A stretch of 64,000 nt of DNA from Desulfomonile tiedjei DSM 6799. GTDB lineage: Bacteria; Desulfobacterota; Desulfomonilia; Desulfomonilales; Desulfomonilaceae. The stretch covers positions 4,468,001 to 4,532,000 of the forward strand of contig NC_018025.1 in NCBI RefSeq assembly GCF_000266945.1, written 5' to 3'. Shown here piece after piece: positions 31,187-42,099 of this stretch; position 1 is the stretch's first letter; the number at the start of each line of letters is the position of its first letter. The notes under the pieces are model-generated. The model was not told where the DNA came from, ran no database searches, and worked only from the letters and a program-made list of their open reading frames with translations. The translations under genes were made by a program, and so were the position numbers.

Positions 31187-32443
31187 ATGGGTGATGGAGA
31201 GCGAAAAATTCTGGTCGTAGGTGGCGGGATAAGCGGAATGACCGCAGCTATCGAAGCCGCCGAAACCGGAGCGGAAGTAGTTCTTGTAGAGAAAAACCCG
31301 TATCTCGGCGGCCGCGTGGCTCAGCTTAATCAATATTTTCCCAAGCTGTGCCCCCCTTCTTGCGGACTGGAGATCAATTTCAGGCGCATTAAACAGAATG
31401 CGAACATTACGTTTCACACCCTTGCAGAAGTGCAGTCGATTTCCGGAGGACCGGGAAATTACGAAGTGACGGTCGCAATTCAGCCGCGGTATGTAAACGA
31501 CAACTGCACAGCATGTGGAAAATGTGCTGAAGTCTGTGAAACCGAAGTGCCGAACGGTTTGAACTATGACATGGATAATGTGAAAGCCGCACGTTTGCCC
31601 CATGCAATGGCATTTCCGTTCAAGTACATGATTGCTCCTGAAATCATCGGCACGGATGAAGCAACGAAATGCGCAGAAGCATGTCCTTATGGTGCAGTTG
31701 ACCTTACCATGCAGCCGACCACGCTGACTTACAACGTTGGAGCGGTAGTATGGGCCACCGGCTGGGATCCGTACAACGCTGCTAACGTGGATTACCTCGG
31801 TTTCGGAAGTATCCCCAATGTCATCACCAGCGTTATGTTCGAACGTCTAGTGTCTCCCGGCGGTCCCACAGGCGGCAAACTCCTGAGGCCTTCTGATGGG
31901 AAAGAAGTAAAGAGCGTTGCTTTTGTGCAGTGCGCAGGTTCACGAGATGAGAACCATCTGAAATACTGTTCCGGCGTTTGCTGTCTGGCCTCCTTGAAAC
32001 AAGCCACGTATCTCCGGGAACGAGTATCTGACGGAAATGCATTCATCTACTATATAGACGTCCGAGCGATGGGAAAATACGAGGATTTCTATCTCAAGGT
32101 CAAACAGGATGAAAATATCGTCCTGACCAAAAGCAAAATAGCCCGCATTACTCCGGACCCAGAAACAGGCGGAGTCATTGTGGAAGGCGAAGACATCGGG
32201 CGTGGAGCAATGGTGAAGCAGAAGGTGGATCTCGCGGTCCTGGCTGTGGGCATGGTCCCTGGTACAGCCTCCGTGAAGCCCTCCCTCGAGATGGAATACG
32301 ATGATTTCGGATTCGTCACCGCATCCGGCTCTTCGGGAATAATACCCGCAGGGTGTGTGAAAGCGCCCATGGAGGTGGCTGCTTCCCTGCAGGACGCGAC
32401 AGCGGCGGCTCTTAAAGCGCTACAGTGCAGCATGGGGAGGTAA
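31187..32443 (+). CDS. qmoA: QmoA-type flavoprotein (HdrA-like)
   Basis: A 418-residue FAD protein of the Qmo complex, which in sulfate reducers links the menaquinone pool to APS reductase. It starts with the FAD-binding VVGGGISGMTAAIEAAE (Gly12-Gly17) and EKNPYLGGRVAQL. The HdrA-like CPPSCGLEINFRR and a CX2CX2CX3C cluster, C107-C117 (CTACGKCAEVC), follow; CAEACPYGA and AFVQCAGSRDENHLKYCSGVCC are the typical C-terminal features. GGAGG precedes the ATG. Length matches QmoA, shorter than methanogen HdrA. qmoB starts directly after the stop. aprBA and sat, the usual neighbours, are not in the window. Confidence 0.9.
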   Translation: MGDGERKILVVGGGISGMTAAIEAAETGAEVVLVEKNPYLGGRVAQLNQYFPKLCPPSCGLEINFRRIKQNANITFHTLAEVQSISGGPGNYEVTVAIQPRYVNDNCTACGKCAEVCETEVPNGLNYDMDNVKAARLPHAMAFPFKYMIAPEIIGTDEATKCAEACPYGAVDLTMQPTTLTYNVGAVVWATGWDPYNAANVDYLGFGSIPNVITSVMFERLVSPGGPTGGKLLRPSDGKEVKSVAFVQCAGSRDENHLKYCSGVCCLASLKQATYLRERVSDGNAFIYYIDVRAMGKYEDFYLKVKQDENIVLTKSKIARITPDPETGGVIVEGEDIGRGAMVKQKVDLAVLAVGMVPGTASVKPSLEMEYDDFGFVTASGSSGIIPAGCVKAPMEVAASLQDATAAALKALQCSMGR

Positions 32444-34588
32444 ATGTTTATGGATCAGAAAATCGGTGTTTATATTTGCTCTGGCTGCAATATTGGAGAA
32501 TCCATAGACGTGGACGCCCTCTCCTCAGTGGCCAACGAATTTTCCATAGCGAAATGCGAATCCAATCCTGCGCTGTGCGGCGAGGAAGGACTCGCTCTCA
32601 TAAAGAAGGATGTTGAATCCGGAGAAGTGAACAGCGTTCTTATCGCTGCGTGTTCAGGCCGAGTCAAAACCGACGTCTTCTCCTTCGATCCCATGACCAC
32701 TATTCTCGAAAGAGTGAATATTCGGGAACACGTTGCATGGTGTCAGCCCGCAGGCGCAGAAGATACCCAGATGATGGCTGAAGACTACATGCGCATGGGC
32801 ATCACCAAGGTTGAGAAGACCACGCTGCCGAAACCCTATATCGAGGAAACGGACAAAACCATTCTGGTCATCGGCGGCGGTGTGAGTGGCATGCAGGCAG
32901 CGCTCGAGGCGGCTCGGGCAGGCTATCAGGTAAAACTCGTCGAAAAGGAACCGGAACTCGGCGGAAAGATGAGCACCTGGTACAAAAATACACCTCTTGG
33001 CGCACCCTACCAGGATCTTTCTGAAATTACCGTTCAGCAAACCATAGATAGTGTCAAAGCGAATTCCAATATATCGGTGTTCACCGGCACCACCACAGAG
33101 AAGATCAGCGGCGCTCCCGGAATGTTCGACGTCACGCTGAGCAACGGCGCAGGCACTCAGAGAATCGGGTCAATCGTGCTGGCGGCAGGATGGAAGCCGT
33201 ACGATCCTTCAAAGCTGGAGCACCTCGCATACGGCAAATTCCCGGATGTGATCACAAGCGTGCAGATGGAAGAAATGGCCAAGAACGGCAAGATCACCTG
33301 TCCGTCTGACGGTTCGGAGCCTTCGGTAGTAGCGTTTGTGCAGTGTGCCGGTTCACGCGACGAAAATCACCTTCCTTACTGCAGTGCAGTTTGCTGCAGG
33401 GTGTCACTCAAACAGGCGGAGTACGTAAAAGAGCAGAATGAAGAGAACAAAGTCATCGTTTTCTACAAAGATATGCGTACTCCCGAACAGCATGAAGAGT
33501 TCTATCGAAAGGTCCAGAAAGACGGTGTGGTATTTGTCAAGACCGACACCGCCAATATTGCCATAGCAGAAGGATCGGAACGGAAGCTCAGTATAGAAGC
33601 GACGGACGAGTTGCTGAACGAGCCTGTCATGATGGAGGCCGATCTTATCGTTTTGGCGACAGGAATGCAGCCTGCCGTATTGGACGATCCGATTCTCAAT
33701 CTGGAATATCGCCAGGGTCCGGCATTACCGGATCTCAAATACGGTTTTCCGGATTCCCATTTTGTTTGCTTCCCCTATGAGACCCGCCGAACCGGCATTT
33801 ATACCGCAGGCTGCGTAAGGCAGCCCATGACTGCCACCCGCTCTGCAAATGACGGCGCTGGTGCAGCTCTGAAAGCTATTCAGTGCGTAGAAATGGTGTC
33901 CCAGGGCAAAGCCGTGCATCCGAGAGCCGGGGATTTGTCCTATCCGGAGCTGTTCATTCAGCGATGTACCCAGTGCAAACGTTGCACTGAGGAATGCCCG
34001 TTCGGCATGTACAACGAAGACGTCAAAGGGACTCCTCTGCCGCATCCTACCCGATGCCGAAGATGCGGAATCTGCATGGGGTCATGTCCGGAACGCATTA
34101 TCTCCTTCAACAACTACTCCGTGGATATGATCGGCTCCATGATCAAATCCATAAACGTGCCCGACGAGTACGACGAGAAACCCCGAGTGATAGGGCTCAT
34201 TTGCGAGAACGACGCGTATCCTGCGCTGGACATGGTTGGAATCAACAAGCTTCAGTATCCGCCCTGGGTTCGCTTCATTCCGGTCAGGTGTCTGGGATCC
34301 GTGAACCTCGTATGGATCGCAGATGCGCTCTCGAAAGGAATTGACGGTATCGTCCTGTTCGGATGCCGATATGGTGATGATTACCAGTGCCATTTCATCC
34401 AGGGCAGTGAGCTTGCGAACACCAGAATGAGCAAAATCAAGGAAACCTTGGACCGGCTGGTGCTGGAATCCGATCGCATCAGGTTCGAGCAGATCGCCAT
34501 TGATGATTACGGCAAGATACCGACTATTCTGGAAGAGTTCGCAGCCAAGCTGGAGGAACTTGGGCCGAATCCGTACAAAGGATTCTGA
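32444..34588 (+). CDS. qmoB: QmoB-type iron-sulfur flavoprotein with MvhD-like domain
   Basis: A 714-residue protein, second subunit of Qmo. After a short N-terminal CSGCNIG segment and an HdrA-like region comes an FAD domain (VIGGGVSGMQAALEA near residue 142). Two ferredoxin-type motifs, CTQCKRCTEECP and CRRCGICMGSCP, lie near residues 507-550. The C-terminal 130 residues resemble MvhD, with FGCRYGDDYQCHF and other Cys. GGGGAGG at the end of qmoA serves it; the ATG at 32444 touches the qmoA stop, but an ATG at 32450 has better spacing. Membrane segments are absent. Confidence 0.9.
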   Translation: MFMDQKIGVYICSGCNIGESIDVDALSSVANEFSIAKCESNPALCGEEGLALIKKDVESGEVNSVLIAACSGRVKTDVFSFDPMTTILERVNIREHVAWCQPAGAEDTQMMAEDYMRMGITKVEKTTLPKPYIEETDKTILVIGGGVSGMQAALEAARAGYQVKLVEKEPELGGKMSTWYKNTPLGAPYQDLSEITVQQTIDSVKANSNISVFTGTTTEKISGAPGMFDVTLSNGAGTQRIGSIVLAAGWKPYDPSKLEHLAYGKFPDVITSVQMEEMAKNGKITCPSDGSEPSVVAFVQCAGSRDENHLPYCSAVCCRVSLKQAEYVKEQNEENKVIVFYKDMRTPEQHEEFYRKVQKDGVVFVKTDTANIAIAEGSERKLSIEATDELLNEPVMMEADLIVLATGMQPAVLDDPILNLEYRQGPALPDLKYGFPDSHFVCFPYETRRTGIYTAGCVRQPMTATRSANDGAGAALKAIQCVEMVSQGKAVHPRAGDLSYPELFIQRCTQCKRCTEECPFGMYNEDVKGTPLPHPTRCRRCGICMGSCPERIISFNNYSVDMIGSMIKSINVPDEYDEKPRVIGLICENDAYPALDMVGINKLQYPPWVRFIPVRCLGSVNLVWIADALSKGIDGIVLFGCRYGDDYQCHFIQGSELANTRMSKIKETLDRLVLESDRIRFEQIAIDDYGKIPTILEEFAAKLEELGPNPYKGF

Positions 34589-34722
34589 GCGGCAATTCGA
34601 GCGAGTAACCACGGCCGTTACGGCTTAAAAATACCGAGGCGGCGGGCTTTTGCCGGACAGAGGGAAATTAGATCCCCAGTTCCGGTCACCCCTCCGCCAC
34701 GAGTTCCAATCAGGAAAACAGA

Positions 34723-35883
34723 ATGGAAACACGAGTACCTTTTCTTGAAGTGAGCGATGCGATTGTGGCATCCGGAGCGGACACTCTGTACTGGTGCATG
34801 CAATGCGGTCTGTGCACCGGCACGTGTCCATATCGTCTTGTGCCGGGCGAGGCTTCGGAGCAGTTCAATATACGGTGGGTTCAGCGACTCGGACAGCTCG
34901 GTCTCGAAGGATTCGAATCCGAAAATTGTCTGTTCGCCTGTACCACCTGCAGGGCGTGCATGGATCGTTGCCCTCGTGGCGTTGACATTATCGGTAACGT
35001 GAGGGGCATGCGTGGTATGCTGGCCGAGGTCGGCACGATTCCGCCAAGCCTGAAGCCCATTGCAGGAAGCCTCCATTCTCAGGGGAATCCCTGGTCAGGC
35101 GATCGCGGCAAACGTATCGATTGGACGAAGGACATCGATGTCCCGACCTTTTCTGAAGGCACCGAGTATTTCCTGTCGGTATGTTGCACCTCCTGCTACG
35201 ACATGCGCAGCCAGAAGATCGCCAAGTCGGTTGCCAAAGCGCTCACCGCTGCAGGGATAAGTTTCGGCATCATCGGGAACGAAGAGAGCTGCTGCGGAGA
35301 ATCCATCCGTAAGATCGGCGATGAAGCGCTTTTCCAGAAGCTCGCACAGTCAAACATCGAGCTGTACAACAGCAAGGGCGTGAAGAAGATCATCGTTACT
35401 TCCCCGCATTGCCTGTACACGTTCAAGAACGAGTATCCCGAGCTTGGCGGAGAGTATGAAGTGTATCATTACACAGAAATACTTGCTCAGGCGCTTGCAG
35501 GCGGGAAGCTGAAGCTCCAGGGAGACGCAGCCGGAACCGTGGCCATGCACGATCCATGTTATCTTGGCCGTCACAGTGAAGTGTACGACCCGCCTAGGCA
35601 GTTGATCGAGGCGGTTCCCGGTGCAGAGCTGAAAGAGCTTTCCAGAAACAAGAAAGATAGCGTGTGCTGCGGCGGTGGGGGCGGCCGAGTGTGGATGGAA
35701 ACCAAAGCGGGCGAACGGTTCGCGGAACTCCGTATTCAAGATGCGGTTGATTCAGGCGCGAACACTCTGGTGACCTCCTGCCCGTACTGCATCACCATGC
35801 TGGAAGATTCCTGTAATGTTATGGGCAAAACCGATCAGCTCCGCGTGATCGATCTTTCCGAACTCATAGCCGAAAAATTGTAA
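34723..35883 (+). CDS. HdrC-HdrB-like (HdrD-type) iron-sulfur fusion protein
   Basis: A 386-residue soluble protein in the place where qmoC would stand. The N-terminal HdrC-like part has two [4Fe-4S] motifs, C25-C35 (CMQCGLCTGTCP) and C73-C83 (CTTCRACMDRCP). The HdrB-like part has two Cys-rich CCG domains: CCTSCYDM with EESCCGES and PHCLYTF, then HDPCYLGRHSEVYDPPRQL with CCGGGGGRVWME and SCPYC. No membrane helix or haem-b domain is present, whereas QmoC has one. It lies 134 bases after qmoB on the same strand, with only a weak AGGAAA ribosome binding site. It could accept electrons from QmoAB and use a thiol/disulfide or another partner. GlpC-like alternatives are less likely. Confidence 0.85.
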   Translation: METRVPFLEVSDAIVASGADTLYWCMQCGLCTGTCPYRLVPGEASEQFNIRWVQRLGQLGLEGFESENCLFACTTCRACMDRCPRGVDIIGNVRGMRGMLAEVGTIPPSLKPIAGSLHSQGNPWSGDRGKRIDWTKDIDVPTFSEGTEYFLSVCCTSCYDMRSQKIAKSVAKALTAAGISFGIIGNEESCCGESIRKIGDEALFQKLAQSNIELYNSKGVKKIIVTSPHCLYTFKNEYPELGGEYEVYHYTEILAQALAGGKLKLQGDAAGTVAMHDPCYLGRHSEVYDPPRQLIEAVPGAELKELSRNKKDSVCCGGGGGRVWMETKAGERFAELRIQDAVDSGANTLVTSCPYCITMLEDSCNVMGKTDQLRVIDLSELIAEKL

Positions 35884-36602: not shown

Positions 36603-37055
36603 ATGAACGGAATAAGGGCGCTGCAAAGCATCTCTTTTGCCCGGATCTGGGTTTTCGTTGTTCTTCTCCTTTGCGTAACTGCAAGCACGTTAACAGCAGC
36701 AACCCCGGACCGGAACAATACCCCGGACTCAGGCTACAATTCGACACAAACTCCGCAGGACTCAGCCGCAGCCTCGCTGCTCGAGGCCGCTCTGACGCTT
36801 CTGTTGAAGCACGGGTACTCTATCGAGGGCCCCGTCCAGGTGAGCAAGGTTGGACCTTCTTCCCTCACAATCTTCACAGGAAAAGCACAGAACGTGGAGA
36901 TCCTTCTCGCCGAAAAAAGAGTGACAATCAAGAATTCCGAAAACAAAGACATGACTTTGAGCGAAATTAAACAATTTTCCAAAGTTTACATCTGCCGCAA
37001 AGGCGATGAAGTGGTCATTCTCGTGCTCCCGAACAAGGAGAGTAGAAATGCTTAA
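36603..37055 (+). CDS. small exported protein upstream of PilY1-like gene
   Basis: A 150-residue protein with a signal peptide (ARIWVFVVLLLCVTASTLTAA), then a Ser/Thr/Asn-rich linker, then a compact domain of about 90 residues (LLEAALTLLLKHGYSIEGPVQV, TIFTGKAQNVEILLAEKRVTI, VYICRKGDEVVILVLP). I do not recognise the family. GGAG lies before the ATG. Its stop codon overlaps the start of the PilY1-like gene by eight bases, so the two are translationally coupled. It could be a chaperone or accessory of that large protein, by position only. Confidence 0.75.
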   Translation: MNGIRALQSISFARIWVFVVLLLCVTASTLTAATPDRNNTPDSGYNSTQTPQDSAAASLLEAALTLLLKHGYSIEGPVQVSKVGPSSLTIFTGKAQNVEILLAEKRVTIKNSENKDMTLSEIKQFSKVYICRKGDEVVILVLPNKESRNA

Positions 37056-40000
37056 AGCGGCCTATCTTAGAGTGAAGCTCTTCCTGTCACTGGCGACAGC
37101 AGCATGCCTCATCATGGGAGGCGTTCAGAGCGATTCCTGGGCGAAGTATTCTTCCTGCAATGTCCCTCCGGTGGTTGGGGCTAATCCGAAGCCGAACGTC
37201 ATGATTGTTATGGACTATTCCGGGAGTATGCAATTTCCCGCGTATTACGATGATGCGTACCAGAATAGTTATTATAGTAATGGTGTCGCAAACTGCTATT
37301 ACGTCGACTCTGATGACGAACCTCGCGTTCTTAAGACATACGCTCCGTCGACGTCGTACTACGGACTCTTCGAATCGGATAAATATTACGTGTACGAGAC
37401 CGATGCATCGGCAAGCACTGAATATTTTCGGTTGGCCAATCCTCAGCCGGTGAATCAATACGCTTTTTCTGCCGAATCCCAGGACGGTGGCTCAGGCACC
37501 ATATGGTTCACAGCCGCCGGGCACAATTTTCAGGTGAACGATCTCGTCGCCTTTTACGACCTGACAAGTCACAAGAGTCTCAATGGGAATGCCTACACTG
37601 TGACCCAGGTCAGTGGTTCTCGCTTCAAAATTGCCCGACCCTGGAACGGCAAAGCTGATAAGGCAGTGGGATATGCAATCAAACGAATTTACGGGACATT
37701 GGCTCCAGGATCCACCACGGGCGTCAGCGGAAATATTCTCAATTTCGTGAACACTTCGCGAACCGATGCTGCACTCAAGGCGCTTATTGGCGGACGATCC
37801 GTATGCGACAATGACTATTGTTACTTGACGGGCCAGGGTGCACGGAGAAAATTCGGCGACACTGGAGATCTGAAGGCTGATTTTTACATAAGGCCGGCCG
37901 GAATAGTGAATACAAGCGGAGCCACGACCAATGCCGCGTATCCGGATAACTATAGTACCGGCACCTACTATAAAGATAGCGGCGATAACGACCGCGATCT
38001 CATAATGTCAATAACCGGCCAATACTCGGGATCGACGGCTGCGGGTAGCCGGTACGGGGACAGGTATTTTGAGGAATGGACATTCACGTTAACGAAGAAA
38101 ACCAAAGTGATAATGAGTCTTGATGGATCGTGGCCGGGATATGATTATTTGTCCATATATTCGCAGCCTCTTTATAATAATGGAACCGGAGACACATACA
38201 GGGTTGCGTCGAATAGCGGCAATACGGCCAGGATATCCTCGACCCTGAACGCGGGCACCTATTACGTCCGTGCTTCGTACAATGACAATTCCACCAGTAC
38301 CTCTTACAAGAAACCTTACACAATTAAATCCAACGTCCATTTGACTGCCTTTCAACTATCCGGATTCCAGCATCTTGGGGCGATGGGCAGCAAAATAGAA
38401 GCCATTCCATGGGCACGCGTGCGGGTGAGGCTGGAACCGGAAGGCACAATCAAAGACACCCGAAAAGGCGTTATTCAGCAGTCCTTTTCCCGGGTAAGGC
38501 TTGGATTCATGTACTACAAAGGAGTAAACGGTCACGAGGGAAAGATTCTTGTCGGGTGCGACAACGAGAGTATGGACAGACTGATCAAAGCACTCGAAGG
38601 AGTCGGGTCCGGTGACGGACTCGATTTCACCCAGGTTTATCCTTATTATGGGACGCCTACGGGAGAAGCAATGCGGGAAGCGTACGACTATTTCAGGCAG
38701 GCCAACTCGGGCGGGGAGAGCAATAGTACGTTCATTGCACCCAAAACCGCTAAGGACCCGTATTATGGAGCCGTTACAGGGTCCAATGCGATTCCGATAC
38801 CCTGTAGGAAGAGTTTCGTTTTGCTCATCTCGGACGGTGAATGGAATGGATCGTTGGAACCGGTTTTCCCAACGAAACAGATGCATACTGAAGATCTTCG
38901 AACTGCTTCGGAATTCGCTGGTAAACAGAATGCCGATGTATATTCCGTGTTCGCCTTTTCGCAAAGTGTGCAGGGCTACAATTCGATGAAAACCATAGCC
39001 ATGTTCGGCGGGTTCACCGACATTCCGAAAACAGCAGGATGCCCCACACCCGATCCCACGGCCGGTTATCCGTACCCGGTAACCTATGTATCAAATTACT
39101 TTGACAGTAAGACTGATTTACCGTGGCCCGTAGCGAACTGTAACCCTTCGGGAACATATAATGAATGTTACTGCAAGGAATGGGATACCGTTTGGGACAG
39201 AGATGAAGACGGTACCACAGAGCAGAAAGGATTGCCGGACAACTACTTTGAAGCGGACGACGGAAGAAAACTGGAAGAAGCTTTACTAAAGATCCTGGAA
39301 GGCGTTGCAGCAAGAACAGGGGCGGCAAGCGCAGTCGCCACCGTTTCGCAGGAAGTCCGTACCTCGGATATCATCGTACGCGGGGTTTTCGAAGCCGAAG
39401 ATCCTCGAGAGGGTAGATCCGGATCCTATCTTTGGAAAGGACATCTCGAGGCATATTTTCCTTTCGCAGTTGACGACAAAGAGGTCTACGATTTTGAAAT
39501 ACCGGCAAACCAGGGAAAATTGTGTACCGAGATCAATTCGTTAAACTGCTGGGACGGCGGCCAGATACTTGCCTCCAATGTTCCGGTGGACTCCGCGGGC
39601 AGGAACATCTTCACGTGGGATCCTGTGGCAAAAAAACAAAAACTGTTTGACACCACAAACATCACGAAAGATGACCTCTACGGTGCTCAAAGCGGCAGCT
39701 ATACGGATGCCCAAAGGCTGGCCCTGATTAACTGGGTAAGAGGGGAATCTCAGGACCTGCTACGAGATCGCGAAGGATGGAAACTGGGCGATATTGTGTA
39801 TTCCACTCCCGTGATTGTAGGACCGCCTAGGCTCGGTGATGTTTCCCGGCGCGATCCGCACGTGAACAAATTTCTTCAGTACAGAGATAAACAATCAAAG
39901 CGGCCGAAAGTGGTCTACGTTGGTGGAAATGATGGAATGCTCCACGCGTTTCTCATGTCTACAACTGAGGATGGGCTCAACTGGAAGGTGAGAAGGAGTG

Positions 40001-42099
40001 AGGATGGGCAAATCGGAAAAGAGATTTGGGCCTACATTCCAAGCAATCTTCTGACCGAATTAAAAGAACTTGCAGCTCCGACCTACGGCTCCACAGGATG
40101 CAAACACAGAACCATGGTGGACCTCTCAGCGAGATCCTGGGAAGTGTACATGAAATCCGAGAAGTATTGCAGCGCCTCGGAAAAAGACGACAATGACCGG
40201 TGCTGGCGAACGGTAATCGTTGGCGGAGAGCGAGGCGGAGGCGATCTATACTTTGGTATAGATATCACCGATCCGTTTGATCCGCATGTGCTGTGGGAAT
40301 ATTCGATTCTTAAGAACCGTGTGGTTGTGGAGGCCGCAGCTTCGGGAACCGACCCAAATTGTGTCCAGCAATGTAGGAGTAATTGTCAAAACACGTGCCT
40401 TACCGAATATAACACCTGTTACGATGCTTGCCGGGACTGGGGTTGGTCCAAGAAGTACTGCCGCAATCTCTGTACTCCTGAGCAGACGACATGCCAGACC
40501 ACGTGTGAAGCTGGATGTGATGCAAAATGTACACTCCCTCCAGGGGACTTCAAATGCTACGTGCCATTTCGTGACGCTTACGAGAGCATAAAACTGCTTC
40601 CCATGTCCTGGTCACAGCCCTATTTGGGACAAGTCAAAATTCCGCCTTCTGTAAAATTCTACGTGGGCGACCCAAATCCTGTCACTGGAGGTGGTCAACC
40701 TTCCAATTATGTCCAGTTCACCACCGGTACGGATAAGGATAACGACAAAAGAGCCGTAGTATTCATGGGTGGAGGAATTCACATTTTTGACAAGACATTT
40801 GCTACGGAGCCGACAACGATACCTGGACCCGGGACTCCCCCTACCCAGATTTCGATGGATCGTTTCAAACTCGCCCTCTTCTGGCCCTTCCTCCTCATGA
40901 TGGACATTGAAACCGGCCAAAACCTGTTTGAGTATGTGTGGCCTGTAGTGCTGAACAAGAACATCAACAATTTCAACGTAAAGACTGCCGGATCAAATAC
41001 GATTCCTTATGCAATGTCGGATCCCCTCTGCCTCGACATTTGGGATCAGGAAAATGACACTGTCGGAGATGACGGCTACATAGACCGAATATACGTCGGG
41101 GATATGAACGGTTACCTGTACGGAATAAAGTTTAATCTCGACGATCGTTTCCCGAATGCTACCACCACAAACTCGAATTTCGGGATGCAAGTGGAAATCT
41201 GGCCTACAAAGCCCATTTCGGGTGACGACCTGGGCACAGACGATTACCGATCCGGATTGCAGCCGATTACAGTATCACCGGTGGCAAGTATGGAACCAAT
41301 TGACACGTCGACTATGCCGGCTCTCCGAGTAATCTTCGGAACCGGAAAGTACGACGATGTCATGGAAGCTGATTCCGACAAACAGGATACTGCGAGGATG
41401 ACATTGTACAACTTGAGAGATCCTATTATAACAACAAGCGGAGGAGTGACGTACGGCCTTCCGGTCATTGATCCGACAAACTCTCATCAGGTGTACGATT
41501 CGACTCACACGACAAACTTCAGGGTGCAATTCATCCCGAGGTGCGGTTTGCCCAACAACATCGTCTCTTTCAACAACAACTGCAATTGGATGAAAAACGC
41601 AACAGATGCGGATTGCTGTCAGAGTTCGTGCAGTTCGCCGTGTTACAAGTGTATATACGATTTGAGACACCCATGCACAACTAGCATGAATAACTGTATT
41701 TTCCCGACCGACTCGGTCACCGATAAACCGGGAGAAAGAATCATCGGTAAACCGTTGCTTGCAGGCGGAACAGTGTTCTTTACAACATACACTCCGCCTC
41801 ACGATGCGTGCGGGTTCACAGGTAAAGGTATACTCTACGCCTTCAACTATATGTGTGAGGCGATGGAGGGCAATCCGTTCGATACCCTGGATACGGTTGC
41901 CGTGCCCGGGCCGGGAGGTGTAGATAATCCCGCCGGCTATGTGGCGGGTGAGCCTGTTACCGGGGTTCCTAGTAGGCCGGTTCTCGATTCCAGAGGTGAG
42001 AACGTGATCGTGCAAATGAGTGACGGCACACTAAAGAGGTACAAAGTCGATCTCGGTGACAACAAGCCGCTCCAGTTCAGAGGTTGGCGCGCGAGGTAA
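37048..42099 (+). CDS. PilY1-like adhesin with VWA region and Cys-rich inserts
   Basis: A 1683-residue exported protein with signal peptide (VKLFLSLATAACLIMGG). Residues 50-62 hold a MIDAS-like DYSGSM starting a von Willebrand A-type region that continues to about residue 760, with inserted segments; SFVLLISDGEWNG is another VWA strand. A calcium-loop-like DRDEDG lies near residue 716. The C-terminal part, from about residue 900, is a PilY1 beta-propeller (GDIVYSTPVIVG, VVYVGGNDGMLHAF, YVGDMNGYLYG). Two Cys-rich inserts, near residues 1103-1170 and 1510-1550, are unusual. PilY1 proteins act with type IV pili in adhesion, pilus retraction and sensing. No minor pilin genes are adjacent. AAGGAG precedes the ATG at 37048; an ATG at 37006 lies inside the previous gene. 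Confidence 0.88.
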   Translation: MLKAAYLRVKLFLSLATAACLIMGGVQSDSWAKYSSCNVPPVVGANPKPNVMIVMDYSGSMQFPAYYDDAYQNSYYSNGVANCYYVDSDDEPRVLKTYAPSTSYYGLFESDKYYVYETDASASTEYFRLANPQPVNQYAFSAESQDGGSGTIWFTAAGHNFQVNDLVAFYDLTSHKSLNGNAYTVTQVSGSRFKIARPWNGKADKAVGYAIKRIYGTLAPGSTTGVSGNILNFVNTSRTDAALKALIGGRSVCDNDYCYLTGQGARRKFGDTGDLKADFYIRPAGIVNTSGATTNAAYPDNYSTGTYYKDSGDNDRDLIMSITGQYSGSTAAGSRYGDRYFEEWTFTLTKKTKVIMSLDGSWPGYDYLSIYSQPLYNNGTGDTYRVASNSGNTARISSTLNAGTYYVRASYNDNSTSTSYKKPYTIKSNVHLTAFQLSGFQHLGAMGSKIEAIPWARVRVRLEPEGTIKDTRKGVIQQSFSRVRLGFMYYKGVNGHEGKILVGCDNESMDRLIKALEGVGSGDGLDFTQVYPYYGTPTGEAMREAYDYFRQANSGGESNSTFIAPKTAKDPYYGAVTGSNAIPIPCRKSFVLLISDGEWNGSLEPVFPTKQMHTEDLRTASEFAGKQNADVYSVFAFSQSVQGYNSMKTIAMFGGFTDIPKTAGCPTPDPTAGYPYPVTYVSNYFDSKTDLPWPVANCNPSGTYNECYCKEWDTVWDRDEDGTTEQKGLPDNYFEADDGRKLEEALLKILEGVAARTGAASAVATVSQEVRTSDIIVRGVFEAEDPREGRSGSYLWKGHLEAYFPFAVDDKEVYDFEIPANQGKLCTEINSLNCWDGGQILASNVPVDSAGRNIFTWDPVAKKQKLFDTTNITKDDLYGAQSGSYTDAQRLALINWVRGESQDLLRDREGWKLGDIVYSTPVIVGPPRLGDVSRRDPHVNKFLQYRDKQSKRPKVVYVGGNDGMLHAFLMSTTEDGLNWKVRRSEDGQIGKEIWAYIPSNLLTELKELAAPTYGSTGCKHRTMVDLSARSWEVYMKSEKYCSASEKDDNDRCWRTVIVGGERGGGDLYFGIDITDPFDPHVLWEYSILKNRVVVEAAASGTDPNCVQQCRSNCQNTCLTEYNTCYDACRDWGWSKKYCRNLCTPEQTTCQTTCEAGCDAKCTLPPGDFKCYVPFRDAYESIKLLPMSWSQPYLGQVKIPPSVKFYVGDPNPVTGGGQPSNYVQFTTGTDKDNDKRAVVFMGGGIHIFDKTFATEPTTIPGPGTPPTQISMDRFKLALFWPFLLMMDIETGQNLFEYVWPVVLNKNINNFNVKTAGSNTIPYAMSDPLCLDIWDQENDTVGDDGYIDRIYVGDMNGYLYGIKFNLDDRFPNATTTNSNFGMQVEIWPTKPISGDDLGTDDYRSGLQPITVSPVASMEPIDTSTMPALRVIFGTGKYDDVMEADSDKQDTARMTLYNLRDPIITTSGGVTYGLPVIDPTNSHQVYDSTHTTNFRVQFIPRCGLPNNIVSFNNNCNWMKNATDADCCQSSCSSPCYKCIYDLRHPCTTSMNNCIFPTDSVTDKPGERIIGKPLLAGGTVFFTTYTPPHDACGFTGKGILYAFNYMCEAMEGNPFDTLDTVAVPGPGGVDNPAGYVAGEPVTGVPSRPVLDSRGENVIVQMSDGTLKRYKVDLGDNKPLQFRGWRAR

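What the first reader, a model, noticed from the sequence alone, without database searches (positions are those of the whole stretch)
40357..40560. CX3C-repeat insert in the PilY1-like protein
Between two propeller strands lies a roughly 70-residue insert with 13 Cys in a repeated C-x3-C register (CVQQCRSNCQNTC, CYDAC, CRNLC, CQTTCEAGCDAKC). Twin CX3C patterns form disulfide-linked helical hairpins in other proteins. Such a knot, placed in the lid region of a propeller, is not part of PilY1 as I know it. It may be a redox or metal site on the cell surface, relevant in an anaerobe, or a mechanically locked adhesion tip.
Basis: partly seen in the sequence, partly recalled or inferred. Interest (0 to 1): 0.66.

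Follow-up and report, generated by a model that had tools for sequence, protein, structure and literature searches.

The report
Disulfide-stapled helical hairpin in PilY1
A pilus-tip-type surface protein of a sulfate-reducing bacterium carries an extra finger made of two helices that appear to be riveted together by six disulfide bonds; all PilY1 proteins found in its genus have it and none of the more distant relatives examined does, so it is probably a hardened, genus-specific structural or adhesive spike.

Summary
The 1683-residue PilY1-like protein (window 37048-42099, +) has a Cys-rich insert. Its core is a 12-Cys palindrome at residues 1105-1161 (40360-40530): spacings 4,4,4,7,4,(10),4,7,4,4,4. 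Random placement never gave this pattern in 200,000 trials. All five PilY1 genes found in the genus (three here, two in the one congener held) keep all 12 Cys. Every one of those Cys columns mixes TGT and TGC, while the other hairpin residues are only 36% identical. AlphaFold2 from the single sequence gives a confident helical hairpin (pLDDT about 84-96). A simple geometric fit satisfies six nested disulfides at once. Profile search finds neurotoxin B-IV, a solved helical hairpin (E 0.0015). Family-level relatives have a shorter Cys-free or 2-Cys loop at that site; 395 genomes of the phylum, plus phages, plasmids and viral contigs, gave no convincing relative. The genome encodes DsbA proteins and a VKOR-DsbA fusion, so disulfides can form. 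Best reading: a fully oxidised disulfide ladder, a rigid spike on the propeller between two blades, for adhesion or mechanical bracing. Redox switching or metal binding is not excluded but has no positive support.

The parts
37048..42099 (+). PilY1-like protein, 1683 aa: signal peptide, N-terminal region with MIDAS-like DYSGSM, C-terminal PilY1 beta-propeller
   Evidence: PF05567 58.9 bits, cut-off 28.1; match to 3HX6
40360..40530 (+). 12-Cys palindromic hairpin core, residues 1105-1161
   Evidence: invariant Cys in five genes; spacing statistics
40354..40437 (+). helix 1 of the hairpin, residues 1103-1130
   Evidence: AlphaFold2 single sequence, pLDDT mostly 84-96
40438..40449 (+). turn of the hairpin, residues 1131-1134; the segment between Cys 6 and Cys 7 is 4 to 11 residues long in the five genes
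40450..40527 (+). helix 2 of the hairpin, residues 1135-1160
   Evidence: AlphaFold2 single sequence
40555..40557 (+). 13th Cys (residue 1170), not part of the hairpin, not conserved
41035..41103 (+). Asp-rich EF-hand-like stretch DIWDQENDTVGDDGYIDRIYVGD (residues 1330-1352), in the region aligned with the PilY1 calcium blade
   Evidence: alignment to 3HX6, conserved Asp in 12 homologues
36603..37055 (+). small secreted protein (150 aa), overlaps the pilY1 start by 8 bases; homologue next to all five genus pilY1 genes and several family-level ones

Best explanation
The insert is an antiparallel helical hairpin whose two helices are stapled by six nested disulfides (Cys 1-12, 2-11, 3-10, 4-9, 5-8, 6-7). 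It has almost no hydrophobic core of its own and is held together by cystines. It sits in the loop joining the outer strand of one propeller blade to the inner strand of the next (II to III by alignment), a loop of variable length in relatives, and projects from the propeller as a short stiff spike. Only the Cys are strictly held while other residues and the turn length drift, so it most likely acts as a rigid, protease- and force-resistant scaffold presenting a changeable surface, as an adhesive or bracing element of the extracellular PilY1. Shown: sequence, Cys conservation, selection on Cys codons, confident helix-turn-helix prediction, Dsb machinery in the genome. Inferred: closed disulfides, nested pairing, surface location, adhesive or bracing role.
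For: All 12 Cys invariant in 3/3 own and 2/2 congener PilY1, with synonymous TGT/TGC changes in every column; non-Cys identity 36% in the hairpin against 71% in the adjoining propeller. AlphaFold2 without alignment: helices 1103-1130 and 1135-1160, 36 residues at pLDDT 90 or more. Two ideal supercoiled antiparallel helices satisfy all six nested pairs at CB-CB 3.5-4.3 A; 0.8% of random mirrored patterns do as well. Profile hits to helical hairpins: 1VIB (E 0.0015) and 1SS3 (E 0.22), seen again structurally. DsbA matches and a VKOR-DsbA fusion ORF. Only 2-5 V/I/L/M/F/W among 53-61 residues. Shorter loops at the same site in relatives.
Against: No experiment. The fold is from a single sequence; relatives could not be added to the prediction, and the whole propeller failed (pLDDT 32), so the hairpin's position is by sequence alignment only. 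Structural match scores are low (Foldseek E above 1; VIA Z 4-5), as expected for a two-helix hairpin. One paralogue has an extra residue in helix 2 and another an extra residue before the last Cys, so the ladder is not perfectly regular. CX3C pairs on one helix could also hold a metal.
Confidence: 0.62

Rival explanations
1. Redox or force switch: some of the six disulfides open and close under tension or with redox state, and so signal surface contact, as proposed for Cys152 in the vWA domain of P. aeruginosa PilY1.
For: Cys in PilY1 are linked to force sensing in P. aeruginosa (PMC8806160); vanabins, helical multi-disulfide proteins, have some redox-reversible disulfides (PMC9486056). The host lineage is anaerobic (own knowledge of Desulfomonile).
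Against: The known Cys is in the other domain; six redundant staples make a poor switch; no CXXC active-site-like motif; no evidence that any one pair evolves differently.
Confidence: 0.13
2. Metal site: the thiols are free and the hairpin binds Cu(I) or another soft metal through CX3C pairs, like a half of a copper storage protein.
For: Csp proteins bind Cu(I) mostly through Cys thiols on helices of a four-helix bundle (PMC7558416); the present pattern also puts Cys pairs one turn apart on helices.
Against: Two helices, not four; at most one Met or His; no Pfam match to a metal-binding family up to E 10; extracytoplasmic protein in a genome with DsbA and VKOR; palindrome explained by interhelix pairing.
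Confidence: 0.1
3. Docking element: the hairpin is the contact site for a fixed partner (minor pilin or the small secreted protein encoded just upstream) rather than an outward spike.
For: The small upstream gene, overlapping by a few bases, accompanies every hairpin-bearing pilY1.
Against: The same partner family accompanies hairpin-less PilY1 in other genera, and the hairpin surface is not conserved.
Confidence: 0.12
4. Unstructured Cys-rich low-complexity insertion without function.
For: Composition is rich in Cys, Thr, Ser, Asn, Gln; absent from other genera.
Against: Invariant Cys with synonymous codon changes, palindromic spacing, confident helix prediction.
Confidence: 0.03

Closest known systems
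PilY1 / PilC pilus-tip adhesins (Pfam PF05567; P. aeruginosa PilY1, 3HX6)
   Same: Propeller domain, Asp-rich calcium-type stretch, N-terminal MIDAS-like motif, high Cys content (41 Cys here; up to a median of 41 in one myxobacterial clade, PMC13190605)
   Different: None of the homologues outside the genus compared here has the 12-Cys helical hairpin; all three copies lie away from minor pilin genes, in a two-gene unit with a small secreted protein
Cerebratulus neurotoxin B-IV (1VIB), helical hairpin
   Same: Two antiparallel helices with CX3C/x6/CX3C-like spacing; profile E 0.0015; the eight inner Cys correspond, one shifted by a residue
   Different: Free-standing animal peptide; the insert has an extra pair of Cys at each end of the palindrome (12 in all); no evidence of common descent
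Ole e 6 (1SS3) and plant alpha-hairpinins
   Same: Cys-stapled helix-turn-helix with CX3C motifs
   Different: Fewer Cys, different spacing, plant peptides
Twin CX3C / CHCH proteins (small Tims, CHCHD family)
   Same: CX3C pairs nested across a helical hairpin
   Different: Two disulfides instead of six; mitochondrial; no sequence match
Vanabin2 (1VFI)
   Same: Helical, many disulfides, Cys a few residues apart
   Different: Nine disulfides in a bow-shaped protein that binds and reduces vanadium; structural match weak (Z 4.6, rmsd 8.7)
Copper storage proteins (Csp1/Csp3)
   Same: Cys lining helices, one form exported
   Different: Four-helix bundle with free thiols binding Cu(I)

Membership tests
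PilY1 (PF05567) | PilY1 beta-propeller profile over the curated cut-off | tested here: met
   58.9 bits, cut-off 28.1; 3HX6 profile E 3e-38 with alignment A3
PilY1 (PF05567) | Calcium-binding EF-hand-like loop in the propeller | tested here: inconclusive
   Asp-rich stretch 1330-1352 at the part aligned with the 3HX6 calcium region, Asp conserved; binding not tested
PilY1 (PF05567) | N-terminal vWA domain with MIDAS | tested here: inconclusive
   DYSGSM motif in the sequence but no Pfam VWA match up to E 1
PilY1 (PF05567) | Gene next to minor pilin genes (frequent, not universal among PilY1) | tested here: not met
   No prepilin motif found in the window; the genome's five N_methyl hits lie elsewhere
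PilY1 (PF05567) | Location at the pilus tip | not testable with these tools
   The genome does encode PilT, a PilQ-like secretin and prepilins
Disulfide-stapled helical hairpin (descriptive class) | Two antiparallel helices with Cys facing each other | tested here: met
   Prediction and geometry; disulfides themselves not observed
Twin CX3C / CHCH family | Match to the family profile | tested here: not met
   No zf-Tim10 or CHCH match up to E 10 for any of five hairpins
C_tripleX repeat (PF02363) | Score over the curated cut-off | tested here: not met
   14.3 bits, cut-off 22.9
Neurotoxin B-IV type hairpin (1VIB) | Sequence and Cys spacing | tested here: inconclusive
   E 0.0015, 22 bits, driven by Cys spacing; convergence is as likely
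Copper storage protein (Csp) | Four-helix bundle of free Cys | tested here: not met
   Two predicted helices only; no Pfam match
Vanabin | 18-Cys fold with nine disulfides | tested here: inconclusive
   12 Cys in the hairpin; weak structural match Z 4.6, rmsd 8.7

The most novel reading that the evidence does not exclude
The hairpin is a new kind of cystine ladder on a pilus-tip protein that works as a graded mechanical or redox fuse: individual staples open under tension or in reducing surroundings and change adhesion or signalling.
Probability: 0.1. Interest if true: 0.72.

Novelty: new variant of a known kind. Interest (0 to 1): 0.42.

Why it matters
PilY1 proteins are known to vary in Cys number, with disulfide bonds assumed to stabilise them, but a discrete, self-contained Cys module in the propeller has not been described in the papers found. 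This one is small, regular and genus-specific, and the genus has natural relatives without it at the same loop, so its effect on adhesion, stability or force resistance can be tested by a clean deletion. It also shows a bacterial surface protein arriving at the same stapled helical hairpin seen in animal and plant peptides, with six staples.

Tried and rejected
Origin of the hairpin elsewhere: no match in phages or plasmids by tblastn, none in viral contigs, none convincing in 395 genomes of the phylum or in 42 of the class. Three weak phylum hits (E 0.0006-0.006): one is a short secreted protein with CX3C motifs (L074), not a PilY1; for the other two loci no Cys-rich open frame was recovered. 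Other 4xCX3C DNA matches in the genome whose frames were read lie in oxidoreductase-like N-terminal regions or in short or apparently non-coding ORFs. Whole-propeller prediction failed, pLDDT 32. MscS and light-harvesting matches to the model are generic helix pairs. PHROGs and NCBIfam gave nothing for the hairpin. Relatives from the genome search were not put into structure prediction, as its rule does not list them.

Full report
Observation. The ORF at 37048-42099 (+) encodes a 1683-aa PilY1-like protein (PF05567 58.9 bits against a cut-off of 28.1; best solved relative 3HX6, P. aeruginosa PilY1). Twelve form a palindrome in spacing, C-x3-C-x3-C-x3-C-x6-C-x3-C-x9-C-x3-C-x6-C-x3-C-x3-C-x3-C (residues 1105-1161, 40360-40530). 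In 200,000 random placements of 12 Cys in the same span, neither the full palindrome nor eight spacings of four occurred. The 13th Cys (1170) is outside and not conserved.

Where it sits. By profile alignment to 3HX6 the match ends at the LWE strand immediately before the insert and resumes in the stretch beginning at the Asp-rich calcium-type region. The insert therefore lies in the loop from the outer strand of one blade to the inner strand of the next, one blade before the calcium blade, which is blade IV in P. aeruginosa (PMC11891296); so II to III, inferred. Family-level relatives (G004, G008, G009, G011) have a loop of variable length here, Cys-free or with two Cys: the site tolerates insertions.

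Distribution. The genome, G000, is probably Desulfomonile tiedjei: this is inferred from its size (6.5 Mb chromosome) and from the only named relative found, Desulfomonile sp. M47. It has exactly three PF05567 proteins, all with the hairpin. The one congener held has two, both with it. A profile of the five hairpins finds nothing else in 18 family, 42 class or 395 phylum genomes that is convincing, nor in phages, plasmids or viral contigs. PilY1 from other phyla could not be searched exhaustively.

Selection. Across the five genes all 12 Cys are invariant. Every one of the 12 columns contains both TGT and TGC, so the codons have turned over while the amino acid has not. Non-Cys residues in the hairpin are 36% identical against 71% in the preceding propeller part. 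The segment between the two halves varies from 4 to 11 residues. This is the signature of a disulfide scaffold with a free surface.

Fold. AlphaFold2 without an alignment gave helices at residues 1103-1130 and 1135-1160; per-ten-residue pLDDT across them is 84-96, falling to 70 at the end of helix 2, and four of five models have similar mean confidence. With ideal helices in a supercoiled antiparallel pair, all six nested Cys pairs reach CB-CB 3.5-4.3 A together; only 0.8% of random mirrored patterns fit as well (a rough model of mine, not a structure). The hairpin has only 2-5 large hydrophobic residues, so cystines must provide most of its stability. The five-sequence profile finds the solved helical hairpins 1VIB (E 0.0015) and 1SS3 (E 0.22) in the PDB, and the model also aligns to both, weakly. 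Such resemblance is driven by Cys spacing and may be convergence.

Redox state. The genome encodes DsbA-family proteins and an ORF with VKOR and DsbA parts, so disulfides can be made outside the cytoplasm even in an anaerobe. At most one Met or His is present in any hairpin. Closed disulfides are thus the default expectation; metal binding or switching would need evidence not available here.

Context. The genome has PilT homologues, a PilQ-like secretin and prepilins, but prepilin genes do not lie near the pilY1 genes. Each hairpin-bearing pilY1, and several hairpin-less ones in the family, is preceded by a homologue of the 150-aa secreted protein at 36603-37055, overlapping by a few bases. 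PilY1 proteins with many Cys are known: myxobacterial clades have median counts from 17 to 41, and disulfide stabilisation has been suggested for them (PMC13190605); a Cys of the vWA domain is needed for surface signalling in P. aeruginosa PA14 (PMC8806160). No description of a stapled helical hairpin in a PilY1 propeller was found in the papers searched.

Verdict. Real, ordered, conserved, genus-specific. Most likely a cystine-stapled helical spike that stiffens or tips the propeller; new variant of a known kind. The more exciting redox, metal or force-fuse readings are open but unsupported.

Noticed in passing
36603-37055 (+) and homologues upstream of the pilY1 genes in L044-L047, L032, L033, L037, L039: A small secreted protein of unknown family is encoded directly upstream of each of these pilY1-like genes, overlapping by about 8 bases in most genus copies; a conserved two-gene unit without pilins.
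   Followed up: partly
41542-41697 (residues 1499-1550): Second Cys cluster near the C-terminus (CCQSSCSSPCYKC and neighbours); several of its Cys are conserved across the family, unlike the hairpin.
   Followed up: no
G000:C1:4585241-4590319, 75 kb from the window's copy: A 67% identical paralogue, the closest in the genome; the third copy (56%) is 2 Mb away.
   Followed up: partly
L074 (G373): A 145-residue secreted-looking protein of another genome of the phylum with several CX3C pairs, possibly a free-standing stapled helical protein; no family match over cut-off.
   Followed up: no
31187-35883 (+): Heterodisulfide-reductase-like genes (HdrA-type flavoproteins and an HdrB/C-like protein, by eye) lie directly upstream of the pilY1 unit.
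   Followed up: no
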